From Thiovulum sp. ES (lineage in GTDB: Bacteria > Campylobacterota > Campylobacteria > Campylobacterales > Thiovulaceae), in contig AKKQ01000014.1 of assembly GCA_000276965.1 (NCBI GenBank), positions 1-37,120 on the forward strand: a stretch of DNA of 37,120 nucleotides. Reading direction: 5' to 3'. Positions 28,368-37,115 of the stretch are shown piece by piece. The notes under the pieces were generated by a model. It saw only the letters and a list, made by a program, of their open reading frames with translations. It made no database searches and had not been told where the DNA came from. The stretch's first letter is position 1, and each line of letters opens with the position of its first letter. A program made the position numbers and the translations under genes.

Positions 28368-29096
28368 ATGAGGAAAGAAGATGAAAAAGCTAACTCTATT
28401 GAGACAATTCACTTAAAATCAAAATTATTAGAACTTAAAACAGAAGATAATGTAGAAATACTTATCGATGTTCAAGCACTCTTAAAATCCCCTGCTGGTT
28501 CTGATGAAGCATATTTTAAAATTACAGATATTGCTAAAAAGTTTGGAAAAGAAGCTAGAGAAATAACAAAGTTAGCATCAATACAAGATTATATTTTCGT
28601 CTTAAAAGAAGAATTTAAAGTAAAACCTAAGATTGTAAAGAGGGGAAAATATCAAGGAGGAACTTGGCTTCATTACAAACTTTTAAAACCATTTTTAAGA
28701 TGGGTTTTGCCTACAAAAGATTATGCAAAATTAGAAGTTAGTGGAAAACTTGATTTTATTTTTTATAAACAAGAAGACTTAAAGTCTGTTTATGTTGTTG
28801 AAACAGAAGACAATAGAATTAAAATTGGAATTTCATCAAATATTAATAAACGATTTTCTGAAATTCAGAATGCCATAGGATTAAAAATTATTAATTCAAT
28901 TTCTTCTGTAAAAGTTGATAATGCCTATTTAATTGAACAAACTCTTTTAACTTATTTTGATGATTTTCGTCAAAATGGTGAATGGTTGAAAGATGTTAAA
29001 TTCAAAAAAGTTTCTCAAAAAATGCTAGAACTTTTTCATCGATATTTTTTAAATGATTTTGAAATAAAGAATAATGAAATTAAAATTTTAAATTGA
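28368..29096 (+). CDS. KilA-N-like domain plus GIY-YIG (T5orf172-like) putative nuclease/DNA-binding protein, copy 1
   Basis: 242 residues. The region about 38-120 (EAYFKITDIAKKF ... KRGKYQGGTWLHYKLLKPFLRWVLP) is a KilA-N-type DNA-binding domain found in phage and large-virus proteins. Residues about 143-210 match the T5orf172/MUG113 branch of GIY-YIG: VYVVETEDNRIKIGISSN, then KRF, IEQTLLTYF and the terminal QNGEWL. Such proteins occur as phage regulators or homing-type endonucleases. A clear paralogue lies at 36468-37115 in the same orientation, so the pair brackets the island. Activity is not proven. Confidence 0.75.
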   Translation: MRKEDEKANSIETIHLKSKLLELKTEDNVEILIDVQALLKSPAGSDEAYFKITDIAKKFGKEAREITKLASIQDYIFVLKEEFKVKPKIVKRGKYQGGTWLHYKLLKPFLRWVLPTKDYAKLEVSGKLDFIFYKQEDLKSVYVVETEDNRIKIGISSNINKRFSEIQNAIGLKIINSISSVKVDNAYLIEQTLLTYFDDFRQNGEWLKDVKFKKVSQKMLELFHRYFLNDFEIKNNEIKILN

Positions 29097-29110: not shown

Positions 29111-29437
29111 ATGAATGGCTATATTAAATATGGTGAAATTTACGATTATGAAACTTTGAAAAAGAAGATATTGGGGAAAAAGTAGAAACAAATTTTGAAA
29201 GATAATTTAATAAAAAAGACTTGTAAAGATTTTGGAATAACACAAAAAGAGTTAGCTGAAATGATAGGGCTAACAGATAGAACATTATCAAAGTATGCTA
29301 CGAATGAACATATTCCAAAAAATATTATTAACCATATCAATCTATTAGTAGAAAATAGTTATTACAAAGAGATGTTTGAGAGTTTACAAACCACAATTCA
29401 AAAAGCCCAGAAAATAGTAGAAAATATTAGAAAATAG
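29111..29437 (+). pseudogene. XRE/Cro-type HTH regulator; upstream part separated by an in-frame TAG
   Basis: The frame opens at ATG 29111 (MNGYIKYGEIYDYETLKK), meets TAG at 29183-29185 and continues in the same frame. The part after it, from TTG 29195 (80 residues), has a good helix-turn-helix: ITQKELAEMIGLTDRTLSKYA at about residues 15-35. So either a working regulator starts at TTG 29195, or a longer protein of 108 residues is interrupted by a nonsense mutation. Its 3' end contains three 10-bp repeats next to a promoter-like site for the dynamin-like gene, so it may control the island. Confidence 0.6.
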
Positions 29438-29440
29438 TAG
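29411..29440 (+). repeat. three tandem 10-bp repeats, possible operator
   Basis: AAAATAGTAG, AAAATATTAG and AAAATAGTAG follow one another without gaps at exactly one helical turn. They end 8 bases before the TATAAT box at 29449 and overlap the end of the HTH gene. The spacing suits a binding array for a small regulator; no binding is shown. Confidence 0.45.
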
Positions 29441-29448
29441 ATTTATTC

Positions 29449-29475: not shown

Positions 29476-31817
29476 ATGAGTTACGATGATAAAAAACAGA
29501 AACTTTTGGAAAAAAGTGAAAAGCTAAATGAAGCTATCGAATCAGTTTTTAAGAGTGATAAAGATGGCTTGGTTTTAAAACCTCATCACAAAATAGAAGT
29601 TGAAGAGCTTCAAAAACAGAGTAAAACTATTCTTGGGAAAATTCAAAAAGGTGAATTTGAAATTGCTGTTATTGGTCAAGAAGATAGTGGGAAAAGTTCA
29701 CTTCTGAATGCACTTATCAAAACTGATATTTTTCCATCAAATAGTGGTCGAACAACTTACACATCTACAAAATTGATTTCTGGAAAAGAGGATAAAGCAG
29801 AAGTTAAACTTTATACATTTAATGAATTTGAAGATATTTTTATTTCTCGTTTAGAAGCGATTGGAGTTGATGAAAAACTTGCAAAAGAGAAAGGTTTTAG
29901 GAATTTTTCTCCAAATTTAAACTCTTACAAAAATGAGAAAAACAATACCGACATCAAAGACTTAATTGAAGATGCAGAAGAGACTCTAAATTTTAGAGAT
30001 GAAATTATAGAACTTTTGGAAGAAAAAGGTGGTGAAACCGTATCTTTTGATGAAACAAAACTCAAAGATGTGAAAGAATATATAACTGGAACTGAAAACG
30101 ATAAAAGTAAGCCTCGTGCTACAAAAGAGATAGTTATCTACTCTTCAAAACTCAATGCAATGCCAAACTCTATTATTTATGATGTTCCTGGTTTTAACTC
30201 TCCTACGAAACTTCACAAAGAGCAAACAGCCAAAATGTTGAAAGAGTCAGACTCTATTATTTTTATCACTGATGTTAGTAGTCCAAATTTAAAAGGTGAT
30301 GAACTTCAAACTCTCTCAAAAGGTGATGATATTTACGGAGTTTCTCTAAAAGATAAGGTTTTTGTTTTTGGAAACAAATATGACAGAGCAAACAACGAAA
30401 AAGAAGCTGAAGACAATGAAAAAAAGTTTAAAAAAGATGTTTTAGAAAAGATGTTTTAGAAAAGAGAGCTATCGGAGATGAAAAACGATTTTTTGTTGGT
30501 TCTGCTGGTAAGTATCTTGACGAAAATGGAATTGGAGATATTAAAATTGAGAATATTCCAAATTGGGCAAAATCAAATATTGATGAGTTTCGTAAAGAGA
30601 TAGAGAGTTACTATCAATTTGATCGTTTTGAAGTTTTAAAGCGAAAAATCGAAAATACTCAACAAGAGACTCTAAAAGTTTTTGAAGAGATAAAAAATTC
30701 AATTTCACTTCCTGAAAGAATTTCAAGACGAACTTTAGAACGAAAAATCGAAGATGAAGCAAAAACTAATCTTAGAAAAAAACTTGAAGCAAACCTAAGC
30801 CAAATCAAAGTTGATTTGAAAAGTGAATTTGCAGAAAATCTATATTTCTCAAATGGTTTCACTGAAAAAGTGCCAAGCTACTTTTCTGAAATAGATATGA
30901 GTTTTATTGAAAAACATATTCCAAAATATGAGGATAATTTTGACTCAATAAATCGTAAAATCAGAGAAGATTATCTTCATAACCAATTCTTAGAAGATTT
31001 CTCAAATCTCGTAAAAGAGATAGTTGATAACAGAGTCGATGAGGTGCAAGATAGAGTTTTTAAAGCTTTTGTTTCAGCAATTGGAAATAGTTCAGAAATC
31101 GAAAAAATGGCAAAACAGGTCTTTATTTTTGAACAGCAAAGTGGAAAATTTGACTATCTTTTTGAAAGATTCGGTAGAAAAATGTTAGATTTAATTATCT
31201 ATAATCCTATTATGGGTTCAAAACGGGAAGAGGATTATAAAATTTATAGAGATGAATTTTTATATTTAGATAGCAAATATAAAAAAGATGGTCGAATCCT
31301 AAATATGGTTATTTCTGGAAAAGATGAAGCTCTCTCAAGTGGAAACAGCTTAGAAGTTTTTAAAAATGACTTTAATTCTGCTATTCAGAAACTTTCAGAT
31401 TCTCCAAAAGAGTTTGCTGAAACTTGCTTAAATTCTCTCTTTCCACAACTTGAAGAGTTAGCAAAAATAGATGAGAGTTTTGATGATAAAGAGCTTTTTG
31501 GAAATCGAAGAGGAAATTACTCTCGTGAAGATGTTTTAGAGGAGATAAACAGAGATGTTAAAAACTTTAAAACTGTTTTAATTGAGGCTGTAATCCCAAT
31601 TCTTGATTTAGAAACTGTCTTTATCAAACGAGTTGAAAAAGAGATTTTGGTGATGATTTCAAAACTTGACTCACCTGAAATCAACGATTTTGTTCTCAAC
31701 TCACTCGATATTTATCTTGAAAAAGAGTTAGCAAATATCGATGAAAAAGTCGAAGACTACAAACGAAAAAAAGAGATTTTAGAGACAATCGAAAATTTCT
31801 TAAACTCACAAAATTAA
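29476..31817 (+). pseudogene. dynamin-like GTPase split by a 14-bp tandem duplication
   Basis: The first frame (29476-30459, 327 residues) holds an intact GTPase head: G1 GQEDSGKS at residues 67-74, G2 threonines near 93-94, G3 DVPG at 236-239 and G4 NKYD at 300-303. It stops at TAG 30457. The sequence GATGTTTTAGAAAA is present twice in tandem (30436-30449 and 30450-30463). Removing one copy joins the head in frame to the next open frame up to 31817, giving 775 residues with a long helical stalk, as in bacterial dynamin-like proteins. The second part alone has no start before ATG 30816. Bacterial dynamins act on membranes, some in phage defence. The duplication may be a reversible switch or a knockout. 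Confidence 0.8.
30436..30463 (+). repeat. 14-bp tandem duplication disrupting the GTPase frame
   Basis: Two exact adjacent copies of GATGTTTTAGAAAA; 14 is not a multiple of three, so one copy shifts the frame, and loss of one copy restores it exactly. Confidence 0.9.
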
Positions 31818-31857: not shown

Positions 31858-33093
31858 ATGGAAAATTGGGAAATCAGATTAAAAAACTGGGCAGATAAAA
31901 ACGGAGTTACAACAAAGTTTGGAGATTGGCAAAATCTACAAAACTTAACATCGCTTTTTTTGGATAGAAATAATTTAAAAGAGTTCCCATTAAAAGAGTT
32001 GCCTCCTGAAATTGGAAATCTAAAAAACTTAACATCGCTTTATTTTAGAAATAATGATTTAAAAGAGTTGTCACCAGAAATTGGAAATCTACAAAACTTA
32101 ACATCGCTTTATTTAAGCCATAACAATTTAGAAGAGTTGCCTCCTGAAATTGGAAATCTTCAAAACTTAACATCGCTTAGTTTAAGCTTTATCAATTTAA
32201 AAGAGTTACCACCTGAAATTGGAAATCTTCAAAACTTAACAGAACTTGGTTTAAGTGGTAATAATTTAAAAGAGTTGCCACCAGAAATTGGAAATCTTCA
32301 AAACTTAACATCGCTTTTTTTAAGCAATAACAATTTAAAAGAGTTACCACCTGAAATTGGAAATCTTCAAAACTTAACATCGCTTTATTTAGACAATAAC
32401 AATTTAAAAGAGTTACCACCTGAAATTGGAAATCTTCAAAACTTAGAGGTGCTTCGTTTAGACAATAACAATTTAAAAGAGTTGCCACCAGAAATTGGAA
32501 ATCTTCAAAACTTAACAGAGCTTTGGTTAACAGATAAAAAATCAGAAAGAGATAAAGATGAAACGGTTTTTGATTTCTTTATTCGTGCTGGAGGCGATAA
32601 GATTAACATTCAAAAAAAAGTATCTCTTTCTGTAATGCTTCGGTTCTTTAAAAGCAAAGGCTTTTTAAAAAATAATAAAAATAGAGATATAGCTTTACAA
32701 AAGTTTGAAGAAATTTATGAAAATGAGATTTTTATCTACACTGATACTCTTGAAGTTATTCCAAAATATTACAGCAAAATAGTTGAAGTTTTAGAAGATT
32801 CAATTAAGAAAGAGTTTGAAGAGTTAGAAAATAGTTTTGATAAAAATTCCCCTCTGCAAAAAAAGGAGTTTGAAAAAAGGTATCAAACACTTAAAGATCA
32901 CTACACAGAATTTGAGTATCCACTTGAAAGAGAAGAGAATGAAAAAAAAGATAAATTAGAAATGATAGAAGAAGAAAATGAAACTCTAAAATCTGAAAAT
33001 GCCGAACTTCAAGCAAAATTAGACCTCATCGAACAAGAGAAAAAAGAGACTGCTGAAATAGTTGCACGAATTGGAGAGAAGTTTTTCAAATGA
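31858..33093 (+). CDS. cytoplasmic leucine-rich-repeat protein with C-terminal coiled coil
   Basis: 411 residues from ATG 31858, behind AAAAGGA. Residues about 24-225 contain roughly nine 23-residue repeats of the form LQNLTSLxLxxNNLKELPPEIGN, the classic bacterial LRR consensus that forms a curved binding surface. After that comes a unique domain (about 235-330), and finally a coiled coil (about 340-405, rich in Glu and Lys). There is no signal peptide, so it should act in the cytoplasm, perhaps as the sensing part of the neighbouring nuclease-helicase set. Its stop overlaps the first nuclease start as ATGA. Function unknown. Confidence 0.85.
   Translation: MENWEIRLKNWADKNGVTTKFGDWQNLQNLTSLFLDRNNLKEFPLKELPPEIGNLKNLTSLYFRNNDLKELSPEIGNLQNLTSLYLSHNNLEELPPEIGNLQNLTSLSLSFINLKELPPEIGNLQNLTELGLSGNNLKELPPEIGNLQNLTSLFLSNNNLKELPPEIGNLQNLTSLYLDNNNLKELPPEIGNLQNLEVLRLDNNNLKELPPEIGNLQNLTELWLTDKKSERDKDETVFDFFIRAGGDKINIQKKVSLSVMLRFFKSKGFLKNNKNRDIALQKFEEIYENEIFIYTDTLEVIPKYYSKIVEVLEDSIKKEFEELENSFDKNSPLQKKEFEKRYQTLKDHYTEFEYPLEREENEKKDKLEMIEEENETLKSENAELQAKLDLIEQEKKETAEIVARIGEKFFK
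31927..32535 (+). repeat. 69-bp coding repeats of the LRR gene, about nine units
   Basis: Tandem units of 69 bases, many almost identical at DNA level (GAAATTGGAAATCTTCAAAA recurs in most). The near-identity of synonymous positions suggests recent expansion or homogenisation, so repeat number may vary between strains. Confidence 0.85.
33022..33031. repeat. GACCTCATCG copy (10 of 11 motif bases) inside the island
   Basis: The only copy in the accessory region with the extended motif; it is read as D-L-I in the coiled coil of the LRR protein. Other island copies are limited to the 8-base core. Confidence 0.7.
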
Positions 33094-33821
33094 GTGTTCA
33101 AGAATTTTTAGAAAATATAACTTTAGAAGAACTTGAGGAACTTCGACAAAAGAAATTAGAAATGGTGGGTGAAATCCCATCTTTTTCATACTCAAAAATC
33201 AGAAAAGAGGATTTAGAGAATCTTTTTGTTTTGGAACGAAACTTTGACAAAACAGTTTTTAGCTCTTGGTTTGAAAATCATTTAGAAATCTGTGAAGAGA
33301 CAAAAGAGTTTTTAAGAGATTTGCTAAAAAAAGAGTCAGACTTCATTCAAATTTACAAAGAAGAAGATTTAAAAGTTAAATTTTTGAGTCCAATTCTAAA
33401 TCGAGTTGATTTTAAAATTAAATATCAAATTCGGGATTTTTACGAAGAAAACCTACTTTACAAAACTGATAAATTTATTCTAAATGGAACTACTGATTTT
33501 TTGGTTTCAAAAGGTTTTGAACGGGCTGAAAAACCATATTTTTTTATTCAAGAATTCAAAAAAGGTCGAGAATTTTCAGACCCAGAACCTCAACTTTTAG
33601 CTGAATTGATTGCAGGTTTAGAGATTTCCAAAGCTTCTCAAATTCATGGAGCTTATATTATTGGCTCACTCTGGACATTTGTAGTTTTAGAAAAAGTTGA
33701 AATTGAGAAATATCGTTACTCTATTTCTGATGAATTCAATTCAAAAAGAGAGAGTGAACTTTTTGAAATCTATAAAAATCTACTGTTTGTAAAAAATGAG
33801 ATTGAGAAGAGTTTAAAATGA
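33090..33821 (+). CDS. PD-(D/E)XK-like putative nuclease, copy A
   Basis: 243 residues. The first 38 residues (MSVQEFLENI ... SKIR) are identical to copy B. The C-terminal two thirds show a PD-(D/E)XK nuclease pattern: a helix with E91/E92 before LKVKFLSPIL, D136 in NGTTDFLVS, E155-F-K157 in FFIQEFKKG and Q168 in DPEPQLL. The predicted catalytic residues would be D136, E155 and K157. No exact family is recognised. It overlaps the LRR gene (ATGA) and copy B (ATGA), so the three are translated together. It may be the DNA-cutting effector of the set; that is inference. Confidence 0.65.
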   Translation: MSVQEFLENITLEELEELRQKKLEMVGEIPSFSYSKIRKEDLENLFVLERNFDKTVFSSWFENHLEICEETKEFLRDLLKKESDFIQIYKEEDLKVKFLSPILNRVDFKIKYQIRDFYEENLLYKTDKFILNGTTDFLVSKGFERAEKPYFFIQEFKKGREFSDPEPQLLAELIAGLEISKASQIHGAYIIGSLWTFVVLEKVEIEKYRYSISDEFNSKRESELFEIYKNLLFVKNEIEKSLK

Positions 33822-34549
33822 GTGTTCAAGAATTTTTAGAAAATATCACTTTAGAAGAGTTAGAAGAACTTCGACAAAAAAAGCTAGAAATGGTAGGAGA
33901 AATCCCATCTTTTTCCTATTCTAAAATCAGGTTTTCGGACTTAGAGAACTTAGTAAATTTACAACACTCTTTAAAAGGTTTAAGATTTAAATCTTGGTTT
34001 GAAAATAGTCTGAATATTTCAAAAGAGACAGAAGAGTTTTTAGAGAGACTTTTAGTTAGAAATGCAGATTTAATCAAGTATTTTGATGAAGAGGATCTAA
34101 AAGTCCATTTTTTAACTCCTCTTTTTTTGAAAGTAGATTTTTTCTCTCTTGAAAAAGAGCAGAGAGATTTTTACAATGAAAGAGTTACTTATAAAACTGA
34201 TAGATTTATTCTAAATGGAGAGGTAGATTTTGTTTTTTCAAAAGGTATTTTCAAAAGTCAAACCCCATATTTCTTTATTCAGGAATTCAAAGAGGGAAAG
34301 AGTCCATCTGATCCAGAACCCCAACTTTTAGCTGAATTGATAGCAGGTGTAGAGTTAAATAGTTGGAAAGAGATAAAAGGTGCTTATATTGTTGGTGCAA
34401 TTTGGAACTTTGTCATTTTAGAAAAAGTTGGTGAAAACTCATATCAATATTTTGTTTCTGAAAATTTTGACTCAACAAAAATAGAGGATTTGAAAAACAT
34501 CTACAAAAATCTACTATTTATTAAAGATGAGGTGATGAAACTTGACTAA
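33818..34549 (+). CDS. PD-(D/E)XK-like putative nuclease, copy B
   Basis: 243 residues, the same length as copy A. After the identical N-terminal 38 residues the two diverge, but the likely active site is kept: NGEVDFVFSKG, FFIQEFKEG and DPEPQLLAELIAG. The two copies may form a heterodimer or have different specificities. The shared N-terminus could be a docking module for a common partner. The gene starts at ATGA over the stop of copy A and ends overlapping the TTG start of the helicase gene by 8 bases. Confidence 0.65.
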   Translation: MSVQEFLENITLEELEELRQKKLEMVGEIPSFSYSKIRFSDLENLVNLQHSLKGLRFKSWFENSLNISKETEEFLERLLVRNADLIKYFDEEDLKVHFLTPLFLKVDFFSLEKEQRDFYNERVTYKTDRFILNGEVDFVFSKGIFKSQTPYFFIQEFKEGKSPSDPEPQLLAELIAGVELNSWKEIKGAYIVGAIWNFVILEKVGENSYQYFVSENFDSTKIEDLKNIYKNLLFIKDEVMKLD

Positions 34550-36128
34550 AAAAGAGTGTAAAGAGCTGATAGAAAAACTTCCTGATTCTATTTCAGAAAA
34601 TGAAAAAAGAGAAATTCAAAAGATTTTAAAACGAATTAATGAGAGGTTTTTTAACACCTCATCAGAAAATAAAAAGATTGTTTTTGATGAAGATCAATTA
34701 ATAGCGATAAACTCTAAATCTAAAAATATTCTATTGAAGGCTCGTGCTGGAAGTGGAAAAACTGCTGTTCTGGTCGAAAGAGCTAAAAGACTTTTAAATA
34801 ATCGTGAAAAGGTTTTGCTTCTCGCTTTTAATAAAAAAGCCTCTCTCGAAATGAAAAAACGGCTCGGTAACGGTTTTCAGAACTCAAAAACTTTTCACTC
34901 TTTCGCCTCTTCGATTGTAAAATCAAAAGATAATATTCTAATGGATAGAGAACTACTTTTATATATTCAAAATTTTATTCCTAAAAGTCAATTATCTAAA
35001 ATTGGAAATGATGAGATTTCTCAAAAAAAAGAGAGTTTATCTCCTGATTATTTTGTGAAATATATTCGTAATCGTTCAGACTACTCTTTAAGTGGTGATA
35101 AGATTAAATCAAAAGGTGAAAAACTGATTGCTAATTTTCTTTTTGAACACGATAAAAAATCTCTTGAAATTCCAACTATTGATCCTGAAAATAATCGTGA
35201 AGAGTTTGAAAAAATATTAAAATCAAAACTTCAAAAAAGTGGAATTAAATTGAAAAAACTTTCAGATTCAGAAATAGAAAATAGAGTTTTAGCAAATTTT
35301 CCAACTATTTATAAAACCACTGAACGAATAGAAAAATATATCTCAATTGCAAAATCTAAAAACTGGAAACCCGAAAAATTAGATCAAAAAATTCAAAATT
35401 TTTCAGAAGAGAGAGAGTTTTTAAAACTTGCTAACTCTGTTTATAAGAGATATGAAGATAGCAACAAAACAGATTTTAATGATCTCTTAATTCGTGCAAC
35501 TCAAAAAGTCTCAAAACTAAATTTAGATCATATTTTGATTGATGAATTTCAAGATTTTAATCCACTTTTTAATGGTTTAATTCAGAGAGTTTTAGAGTTA
35601 AATCCTAAAATTAATATTTTTGCAGTTGGTGATGATTGGCAAGGAATTAACGGTTTTGCAGGAGCTGATCTAAAATATTTTATAAATTTTAATGAATATT
35701 TCGATAATCCAGAAATCTTAAAAATGAGAAAAAACTATCGTAGCAGAAAAGCAATAGTTGATTTTGGAAATAAAATTATGAGTGCTTCAGAAGATGAGAA
35801 AGCTATTTCGGTTCTTGATGGCGGTGAAATTATAGAAAATAACAAATTTCCAAAAGATAGAGATTTAACTTTTATTACAAGATCAAATTCTGAAAAAAGC
35901 AAATTTCAAGATAAAAATATCACTGAAAAGATAACTGCTCATAAATCCAAAGGCTTACAATTTGATGAGGTGCTTCTTCAAAAAGATAGTTTTGAAAATA
36001 ATAAAACTCACTCTGAAAATAGATTTTTCAAGATTTTTGGCAAAACTGATGATGAAATCAAAGCTGAAGAGAAACGACTTTTTTATGTGGCTATAACAAG
36101 AGCAAAAGATAAATTATATTTGATTTAA
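34542..36128 (+). CDS. short UvrD/Rep-like superfamily 1 helicase
   Basis: 528 residues from TTG 34542. Q-motif region DEDQLIAI (49-56), Walker A ARAGSGKT (67-74), motif Ia LLLAFNKKASLEMKKR, motif II LIDEFQDF (near 333-338), motif III GDDWQGINGFAGAD, motif IV region RKNYRS and motif VI VAITRAKDKLYLI at the very end are all seen. Housekeeping UvrD/Rep is about 670-730 residues; this version is short, with reduced 1B/2B domains, and ends straight after motif VI. It is the last gene of the operon and resembles helicases paired with nucleases in defence loci such as GajB of Gabija, but is not the same arrangement. Confidence 0.85.
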   Translation: MTKKECKELIEKLPDSISENEKREIQKILKRINERFFNTSSENKKIVFDEDQLIAINSKSKNILLKARAGSGKTAVLVERAKRLLNNREKVLLLAFNKKASLEMKKRLGNGFQNSKTFHSFASSIVKSKDNILMDRELLLYIQNFIPKSQLSKIGNDEISQKKESLSPDYFVKYIRNRSDYSLSGDKIKSKGEKLIANFLFEHDKKSLEIPTIDPENNREEFEKILKSKLQKSGIKLKKLSDSEIENRVLANFPTIYKTTERIEKYISIAKSKNWKPEKLDQKIQNFSEEREFLKLANSVYKRYEDSNKTDFNDLLIRATQKVSKLNLDHILIDEFQDFNPLFNGLIQRVLELNPKINIFAVGDDWQGINGFAGADLKYFINFNEYFDNPEILKMRKNYRSRKAIVDFGNKIMSASEDEKAISVLDGGEIIENNKFPKDRDLTFITRSNSEKSKFQDKNITEKITAHKSKGLQFDEVLLQKDSFENNKTHSENRFFKIFGKTDDEIKAEEKRLFYVAITRAKDKLYLI

Positions 36129-36345: not shown

Positions 36346-36467
36346 ACTAAAACTTCAGAAATAGTTGCAACATCGTTTAGTCGTTGTAATGTGAAATTGC
36401 TTTTTATATTATTCAAAATTTATTTGCATATTAAAATATTTATATTTAAATGATTAAGGAAATAAAA

Positions 36468-37115
36468 ATGTTAGAAATTAAAGATAATTCTAAAAATATT
36501 GAAGAAATTAATTTAAAAACCAAGTTGCTTATTTTAGAAACAAAGAATGGTGAAATTCTTGTTGATGTACAAGCTCTTTTAAAAGCACCAATTGGTAGTG
36601 AAGAAGCATATTTTAGAGCAACAGGAATTGCACAAGCATATAAAAAAGATATTCGAGATTTTTTAAGACTTGATGGAACTATCGAATATATCGATATTTT
36701 AAAAGAAGAATTAAAAGTAGAACCTATGATTATAAAGAGAGGGAAATATCAAGGTGGAACTTGGCTTTATTATAAACTTTTCAAACCTTTTTTAAGATGG
36801 GTTTTACCATTCAAAGATTATGCAAAATTAGAAGTTAGTGGACAACTTGAATTTCAGTTTTCACAAAATAGAGTTTTAAAATCTGTTTATGTTCTTAAAA
36901 CAGAAGATAATCGAATAAAAGTAGGGATTTCTTCAAATGCTGAAAAAAGATTTTCTCAAATTAAAAACTCAACTGGACTAAATCTAATAAACACTATCTA
37001 TTCTGAAAAAGTTGAAAATGCCTATTTAATAGAACAGACTCTTTTAACTTACTTTGATGACTATCGACAAAATGGAGAATGGCTTAACGGAGTTGGTTTT
37101 GAAAGAAGTTGTTGA
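36468..37115 (+). CDS. KilA-N-like plus GIY-YIG (T5orf172-like) protein, copy 2, possibly frameshifted at the end
   Basis: 215 residues from ATG 36468, which has AAGGAA six bases upstream; ATG 36450 would add six residues. It is highly similar to copy 1 at 28368 in both domains (EAYFRATGIAQAY, KRGKYQGGTWLYYKL, VYVLKTEDNRIKVGISSN, YRQNGEWL). It ends about 25 residues earlier than copy 1. If one A near 37100 is removed, the frame would continue as EVVEE, so the stop at 37113-37115 may come from a one-base indel. The window ends five bases later, so this cannot be decided. Confidence 0.7.
   Translation: MLEIKDNSKNIEEINLKTKLLILETKNGEILVDVQALLKAPIGSEEAYFRATGIAQAYKKDIRDFLRLDGTIEYIDILKEELKVEPMIIKRGKYQGGTWLYYKLFKPFLRWVLPFKDYAKLEVSGQLEFQFSQNRVLKSVYVLKTEDNRIKVGISSNAEKRFSQIKNSTGLNLINTIYSEKVENAYLIEQTLLTYFDDYRQNGEWLNGVGFERSC

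What the first reader, a model, noticed from the sequence alone, without database searches (positions are those of the whole stretch)
29476..31817. 14-bp tandem duplication exactly breaks a dynamin-like gene; possible reversible switch
GATGTTTTAGAAAA is repeated directly at 30436-30463. One copy less gives a continuous 775-codon gene; with two copies the GTPase head is cut off just after its G4 motif. Both halves remain free of other stops, so the change is recent. Tandem repeats like this can collapse by slippage or RecA-independent recombination, giving on/off switching of a potentially costly defence gene.
Basis: seen in the sequence. Interest (0 to 1): 0.68.

Follow-up and report, generated by a model that had tools for sequence, protein, structure and literature searches.

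The report
Dynamin gene broken by slipped repeat
In this sulfur bacterium a 14-letter DNA stutter has recently cut a dynamin-like gene in two; it looks like an ordinary copying slip that could occasionally undo itself, not a purpose-built on/off switch.

Summary
GATGTTTTAGAAAA is directly repeated at 30436-30463 and puts a TAG at 30457-30459, so a dynamin-family gene splits into a 327-aa head and a 455-codon remainder in the -1 frame. The genome matches Thiovulum sp. strain ES (206 contigs, 2.08 Mb). The closest relative, in Candidatus Thiovulum stygium, is an intact 777-aa gene lacking the extra 14 bp, in the same gene order. The break follows the G4 motif NKYD and removes the G5 region and the whole stalk.

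The duplication lies between copies of AAAAGA spaced 14 bp apart, the signature of a single slippage event. It is very unlikely by chance (shuffles 0.01 versus 1). It is the only exact tandem duplication of unit 10 bp or more that breaks a frame in 455 kb of this genome. None of 43 relatives scanned has one of unit 10 bp or more.

The switch is not supported. There are only two copies, no second allele, no recurrence in relatives, and no other such locus in the scanned fifth of the genome. Spontaneous reversion is plausible, as in E. coli K-12 phnE. I call it a recent, potentially revertible null allele, or possibly an amplification artefact of a single-cell draft.

The parts
29476..30459 (+). 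N-terminal part of the dynamin-like gene: 327 aa, GTPase head with G1 GQEDSGKSS, G3 DVPG and G4 NKYD, ending at TAG 30457-30459
   Evidence: ORF; Pfam Dynamin_N 7.6e-20; 60% identity to the intact Ca. T. stygium relative
30436..30449 (+). copy 1 of the 14-bp direct repeat GATGTTTTAGAAAA
   Evidence: sequence; TRF; period-14 analysis
30450..30463 (+). copy 2 of the 14-bp direct repeat; the intact relative has a single copy of this stretch
   Evidence: DNA alignment with the Ca. T. stygium gene
30432..30465 (+). full extent of the perfect period-14 array; AAAAGA at 30432-30437, 30446-30451 and 30460-30465 is the presumed slippage microhomology
30450..31817 (+). C-terminal part of the dynamin-like gene in the -1 frame (G5 region, stalk and tip, 455 codons). 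Its first in-frame ATG/GTG/TTG is TTG 30816, so it has no obvious start of its own
   Evidence: 66% identity to the intact relative
29195..29437 (+). small HTH_3/Xre-like regulator ORF just upstream (TTG start uncertain); its 3' end holds a 10-bp x 3.3 repeat (29409-29441)
   Evidence: Pfam HTH_3 1.2e-7; TRF
31858..33093 (+). leucine-rich-repeat protein with 69-bp x 7.8 tandem repeats; next gene in the cassette, intact
   Evidence: Pfam LRR; TRF
33090..34549 (+). two adjacent PD-(D/E)xK-like genes, 33090-33821 and 33818-34549 (61% identical to each other); both intact
   Evidence: PADLOC PD_DExK 2.5e-12 and 1.5e-7
34542..36128 (+). UvrD/GajB-like superfamily 1 helicase, 528 aa, intact
   Evidence: Pfam UvrD-helicase 2.1e-32; PADLOC GajB 2.2e-38

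Best explanation
The gene is a single-chain bacterial dynamin-like GTPase of the BDLP/SynDLP/mitofusin type, the second gene of a regulator, dynamin, repeat-protein, nuclease-like pair and helicase cassette. A single replication slippage between two AAAAGA tracts 14 bp apart added one 14-bp copy. That shifted the frame and left a GTPase head without its G5 region or stalk, so the allele is almost certainly null. Shown: the duplication, the frame break, the intact relative without it, and the absence of further lesions. Inferred: slippage as the cause, recency, and loss of function. The same repeat can delete one copy spontaneously, so the allele is probably revertible at some low rate. Nothing indicates that this has been selected as a switch.
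For: The Ca. T. stygium gene is an intact 777 aa without the extra 14 bp, in a matching gene order. AAAAGA microhomology sits at exactly the duplication spacing. It is the only exact tandem duplication of unit 10 bp or more that interrupts a long frame in 455 kb of this genome. The relatives found in genome contigs are nearly all single uninterrupted frames of about 640-950 aa, and none of 43 relatives scanned has an exact tandem repeat of unit 10 bp or more. Both halves show long-term constraint (dN/dS values about 0.29/1.4 and 0.24/0.88), and there are no further stops in 2340 bp, which under neutrality bounds divergence since the break at about 0.02 substitutions per site. In the model of the intact relative, the break falls at the end of helix 310-327, before the last head strand and every stalk helix.
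Against: No sequencing reads or second isolate of the same strain could be examined, so an in-vitro origin is not excluded. Divergence from the only close relative is too deep to date the event independently.
Confidence: 0.72

Rival explanations
1. Artefact: the extra copy arose during whole-genome amplification of single cells, or in assembly, and is not in the living genome.
For: The genome matches Thiovulum sp. strain ES (206 contigs, 2.08 Mb), which from memory was assembled from a few single cells amplified by multiple displacement; that paper was not held. Polymerase slippage at a microhomology could also happen in vitro.
Against: The 34-bp array fits inside even short reads, so assemblers seldom invent it. 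No comparable frame-breaking duplication of unit 10 bp or more turned up in 455 kb of the same draft.
Confidence: 0.15
2. Evolved phase-variation switch: the 14-bp repeat is maintained so that a costly defence gene toggles by slippage.
For: Tandem repeats of this size do collapse: the 8-bp repeat that silences E. coli K-12 phnE reverts readily (PMC6469041, PMC4759930). The locus is repeat-rich (10-bp, 14-bp and 69-bp arrays). Restriction systems are known phase-variable targets (PMC11868660).
Against: Only two copies. None of 43 other dynamin genes scanned has a repeat of unit 10 bp or more. The intact relative lacks even the AAAAGA pair. No similar frame-breaking repeat in 455 kb of the genome.
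Confidence: 0.08
3. Recoding: ribosomes or RNA polymerase slip by -1 around the A-rich stretch and still make the full-length protein from the two-copy gene.
For: The downstream frame is -1 and open from 30432 to the TAG, next to an A6 run.
Against: The only canonical slippery heptamer, A AAA AAG at 30420-30426, lies before a -1-frame TAA at 30429-30431 and so leads to a stop. None of the heptamers between the two stops is canonical. The intact relative needs no recoding.
Confidence: 0.03
4. Functional truncation: the 327-aa head acts alone as a small GTPase or regulator.
For: It keeps G1, G3 and G4 and is an open frame.
Against: It lacks the G5 region, the last head strand and the stalk. No relative in the loci found is naturally cut there.
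Confidence: 0.02

Closest known systems
E. coli K-12 phnE cryptic allele (8-bp repeat frameshift)
   Same: A short tandem duplication shifts the frame of an otherwise intact gene; loss of one copy by slippage restores it (PMC6469041, PMC4759930).
   Different: Different gene and unit length; reversion is proven there and untested here.
Bacterial dynamin-like proteins SynDLP (7zw6), Nostoc BDLP (2j69) and the Campylobacter jejuni DLP1/DLP2 pair (5owv/5oxf)
   Same: GTPase head and long helical stalk; best structural matches to the intact relative (Foldseek E 9.8e-15, 3.1e-12, 2.9e-11).
   Different: 13-18% identity and low full-length TM-scores (up to 0.38). No second dynamin gene lies next to it here, unlike the C. 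jejuni pair and several Firmicutes relatives.
LeoA/LeoBC (PADLOC dynamin-like defence proteins)
   Same: Weak match to the GTPase head (E 3.4e-10).
   Different: Head only; the intact relative no longer matches these models and the operon partners differ.
B. subtilis DynA
   Same: A bacterial dynamin with a reported anti-phage effect (PMC8844932); DynA model hit 4.7e-10 to the intact relative.
   Different: Far below that model's cut-off; DynA is a fused double dynamin (my knowledge); no phage role has been tested for this gene.
Simple-sequence contingency loci (for example C. jejuni, Neisseria)
   Same: Slippage-driven frame change.
   Different: Those have many copies of short units and recur across strains; this has two copies of 14 bp in one genome.

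Membership tests
Bacterial dynamin-like protein (BDLP/SynDLP type) | Dynamin-type GTPase domain with G1, G3 and G4 | tested here: met
   Dynamin_N 7.6e-20; motifs GQEDSGKSS, DVPG, NKYD
Bacterial dynamin-like protein (BDLP/SynDLP type) | Helical stalk joined to the head in one chain | tested here: not met
   Present in the intact relative (model) but out of frame in the window: it descends from a member but is a broken one
Bacterial dynamin-like protein (BDLP/SynDLP type) | GTP hydrolysis and membrane binding | not testable with these tools
   needs biochemistry
Phase-variable (contingency) locus | Repeat whose copy number sets the reading frame | tested here: met
   14 bp is not a multiple of 3; one copy more breaks the frame
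Phase-variable (contingency) locus | Both phases seen in the same strain or population | not tested
   no reads or second isolate available
Phase-variable (contingency) locus | Repeat conserved or recurrent at the locus in relatives | tested here: not met
   absent in Ca. T. stygium and, at unit 10 bp or more, in all other family members scanned
LeoABC-type dynamin defence | Full-length match to Leo models with Leo partner genes | tested here: not met
   head-only weak hits, none from the intact relative; neighbours are LRR, PD-DExK and helicase genes
Gabija | GajA OLD-family nuclease with GajB helicase | tested here: not met
   a GajB-like helicase is present but no GajA match among the eight cassette and flanking proteins scanned

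The most novel reading that the evidence does not exclude
The cassette of Xre-like regulator, dynamin, repeat protein, two PD-(D/E)xK proteins and helicase is an undescribed defence island of Thiovulum, and its dynamin is toggled by gain and loss of a 14-bp tandem copy in natural populations.
Probability: 0.06. Interest if true: 0.6.

Novelty: new member of a known kind. Interest (0 to 1): 0.24.

Why it matters
If it is simply a recent null allele, it is a clean example of slippage at a 6-bp microhomology silencing an accessory gene, and a caution against reading every frameshifting repeat as a switch. If both alleles coexist in Thiovulum populations, it would be a non-pathogen case of phase variation in a dynamin and possible defence gene. 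Existing Thiovulum metagenome reads could test that.

Tried and rejected
Chance match: rejected by shuffles. Programmed frameshifting: no usable slippery site between the two relevant stops. Independent translation of the C part: no ATG/GTG/TTG in frame before TTG 30816. Genome-wide use of such repeats: only this one among those of unit 10 bp or more in 455 kb breaks a long frame. More alleles of the same gene: none in viral contigs, phages or plasmids; in 399 genomes of the order only the Ca. T. stygium copy is close. The genome-contig scan gave 42 loci, all distant apart from that one. Papers on reversible microhomology duplications and on amplification chimeras gave nothing directly usable. 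The original strain ES paper is not held. An early comparison call failed on a wrong frame and was redone.

Full report
Observation. GATGTTTTAGAAAA stands twice in tandem at 30436-30463, TRF reports the array, and the perfect period-14 match runs over 30432-30465. Dinucleotide shuffles of the window give 0.01 exact tandem runs of this kind against one observed. The first ORF, 29476-30459, has 327 codons and stops at TAG 30457-30459. The rest is open in the -1 frame from 30432 to 31817.

What genome it is. The window is a whole contig of a 2,080,587-bp, 206-contig assembly. Its nearest relatives are Candidatus Thiovulum imperiosus and Candidatus Thiovulum stygium. Published counts for Thiovulum sp. 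strain ES are 206 contigs and 2.08 Mb (PMC9938260), so I identify it as strain ES. From memory, that draft came from amplified single cells; the paper itself was not held.

What the gene is. The first part matches Pfam Dynamin_N at 7.6e-20, with G1 GQEDSGKSS, G3 DVPG and G4 NKYD. Ca. T. stygium has an intact 777-aa relative, 60% identical to the first part and 66% to the second. Its DNA lacks the extra 14 bases at precisely this place. A scan of genome contigs found 42 loci, almost all with single uninterrupted frames of about 640-950 aa. A model of the intact relative (mean pLDDT 83, pTM 0.56) has a GTPase head and a long helical stalk. Its best solved matches are SynDLP, Nostoc BDLP and the C. 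jejuni DLP pair. On that model the break falls at the end of helix 310-327, before the last strand of the head and the whole stalk. The 327-aa product therefore keeps G1, G3 and G4 but lacks the G5 region and the stalk, and is very unlikely to work as a dynamin (inference).

How the break arose. AAAAGA occurs at 30432, 30446 and 30460, so before the event two copies stood 14 bp apart. One slippage between them yields exactly the present sequence. The relative in Ca. T. stygium lacks this AAAAGA pair, so the predisposition belongs to this lineage. Both halves evolved under constraint (N: dN 0.29, dS 1.38; C: dN 0.24, dS 0.88) and carry no further stop. If the gene has been neutral since the break, fewer than about 0.02 substitutions per site have accumulated.

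Is it a switch? Physical reversibility is plausible. The 8-bp repeat in E. coli K-12 phnE silences a gene and is lost by slippage at useful frequency (PMC6469041, PMC4759930). In Xenorhabdus, however, lrp null mutations, among them tandem duplications of 26-116 bp, did not behave as phase variation (PMC6786866). Here there are only two copies. Across 44 dynamin genes scanned (115 kb) only the window has a repeat of unit 10 bp or more. In 455 kb of this genome, the dynamin repeat is the only exact duplication of unit 10 bp or more whose presence splits a long open frame. No second allele could be looked for without reads. I therefore rate an evolved switch as unlikely and a revertible null allele as most likely. 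An amplification artefact remains possible.

Recoding was checked. A -1 shift would be needed after the -1-frame TAA at 30429-30431 and before the TAG at 30457. The only canonical heptamer, at 30420-30426, precedes that TAA, and none of the heptamers between the stops is canonical. The second part has no ATG, GTG or TTG in frame before 30816.

Setting. Upstream is a small HTH_3 regulator. Downstream are an LRR protein, two PD-(D/E)xK-like proteins and a UvrD/GajB-like helicase. Ca. T. stygium keeps the order dynamin, repeat protein, PD-(D/E)xK pair, helicase, and close matches along the whole helicase were found only in these two loci. In Ca. T. stygium the helicase is split over three frame segments. 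That assembly is mainly long-read with 12X Illumina polishing, so residual indel errors there are possible. The cassette looks like an accessory, perhaps defence, module, but no known system was matched in full: Leo hits are weak and to the head only, and no GajA match appeared among the proteins scanned. Its function is not established.

Verdict. A real, very likely recent slippage duplication that breaks a dynamin-like gene. It is ordinary in kind, well explained by a known mechanism, with a modest chance of being an artefact and a small chance of being a true switch.

Noticed in passing
33090-34549: Two adjacent PD-(D/E)xK-like genes belong to a family present in many copies in Thiovulum and some relatives (dozens in one genome, G015), often next to unrelated partner genes; the first has no match in Pfam above cut-off or in NCBIfam.
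   Followed up: partly
31858-33093; L016 9626-10868: The LRR gene carries 69-bp x 7.8 near-identical repeats. At the same position Ca. T. stygium has genes with quite different tandem repeats (27-bp, and about 60-70 bp), one of which shares a C-terminal tail with the LRR protein, suggesting swapped repeat modules.
   Followed up: partly
L016 12369-14055: The cassette helicase of Ca. T. stygium is split over three frame segments, and its second PD-(D/E)xK copy lacks a standard start codon; decay or long-read indel errors.
   Followed up: partly
28368-29096 and 36450-37115: Two KilA-N/T5orf172 proteins, 65% identical, flank the cassette; the second lies at the contig end.
   Followed up: partly
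29409-29441: A 10-bp x 3.3 repeat (AGAAAATAGT) spans the end of the small regulator ORF, about 35 bp before the dynamin start.
   Followed up: no
L017 8328-12051: A second, intact 758-aa dynamin-like gene of the same genome sits beside a ZorA-like MotA/ExbB protein (PADLOC ZorA2, 1.6e-60).
   Followed up: no
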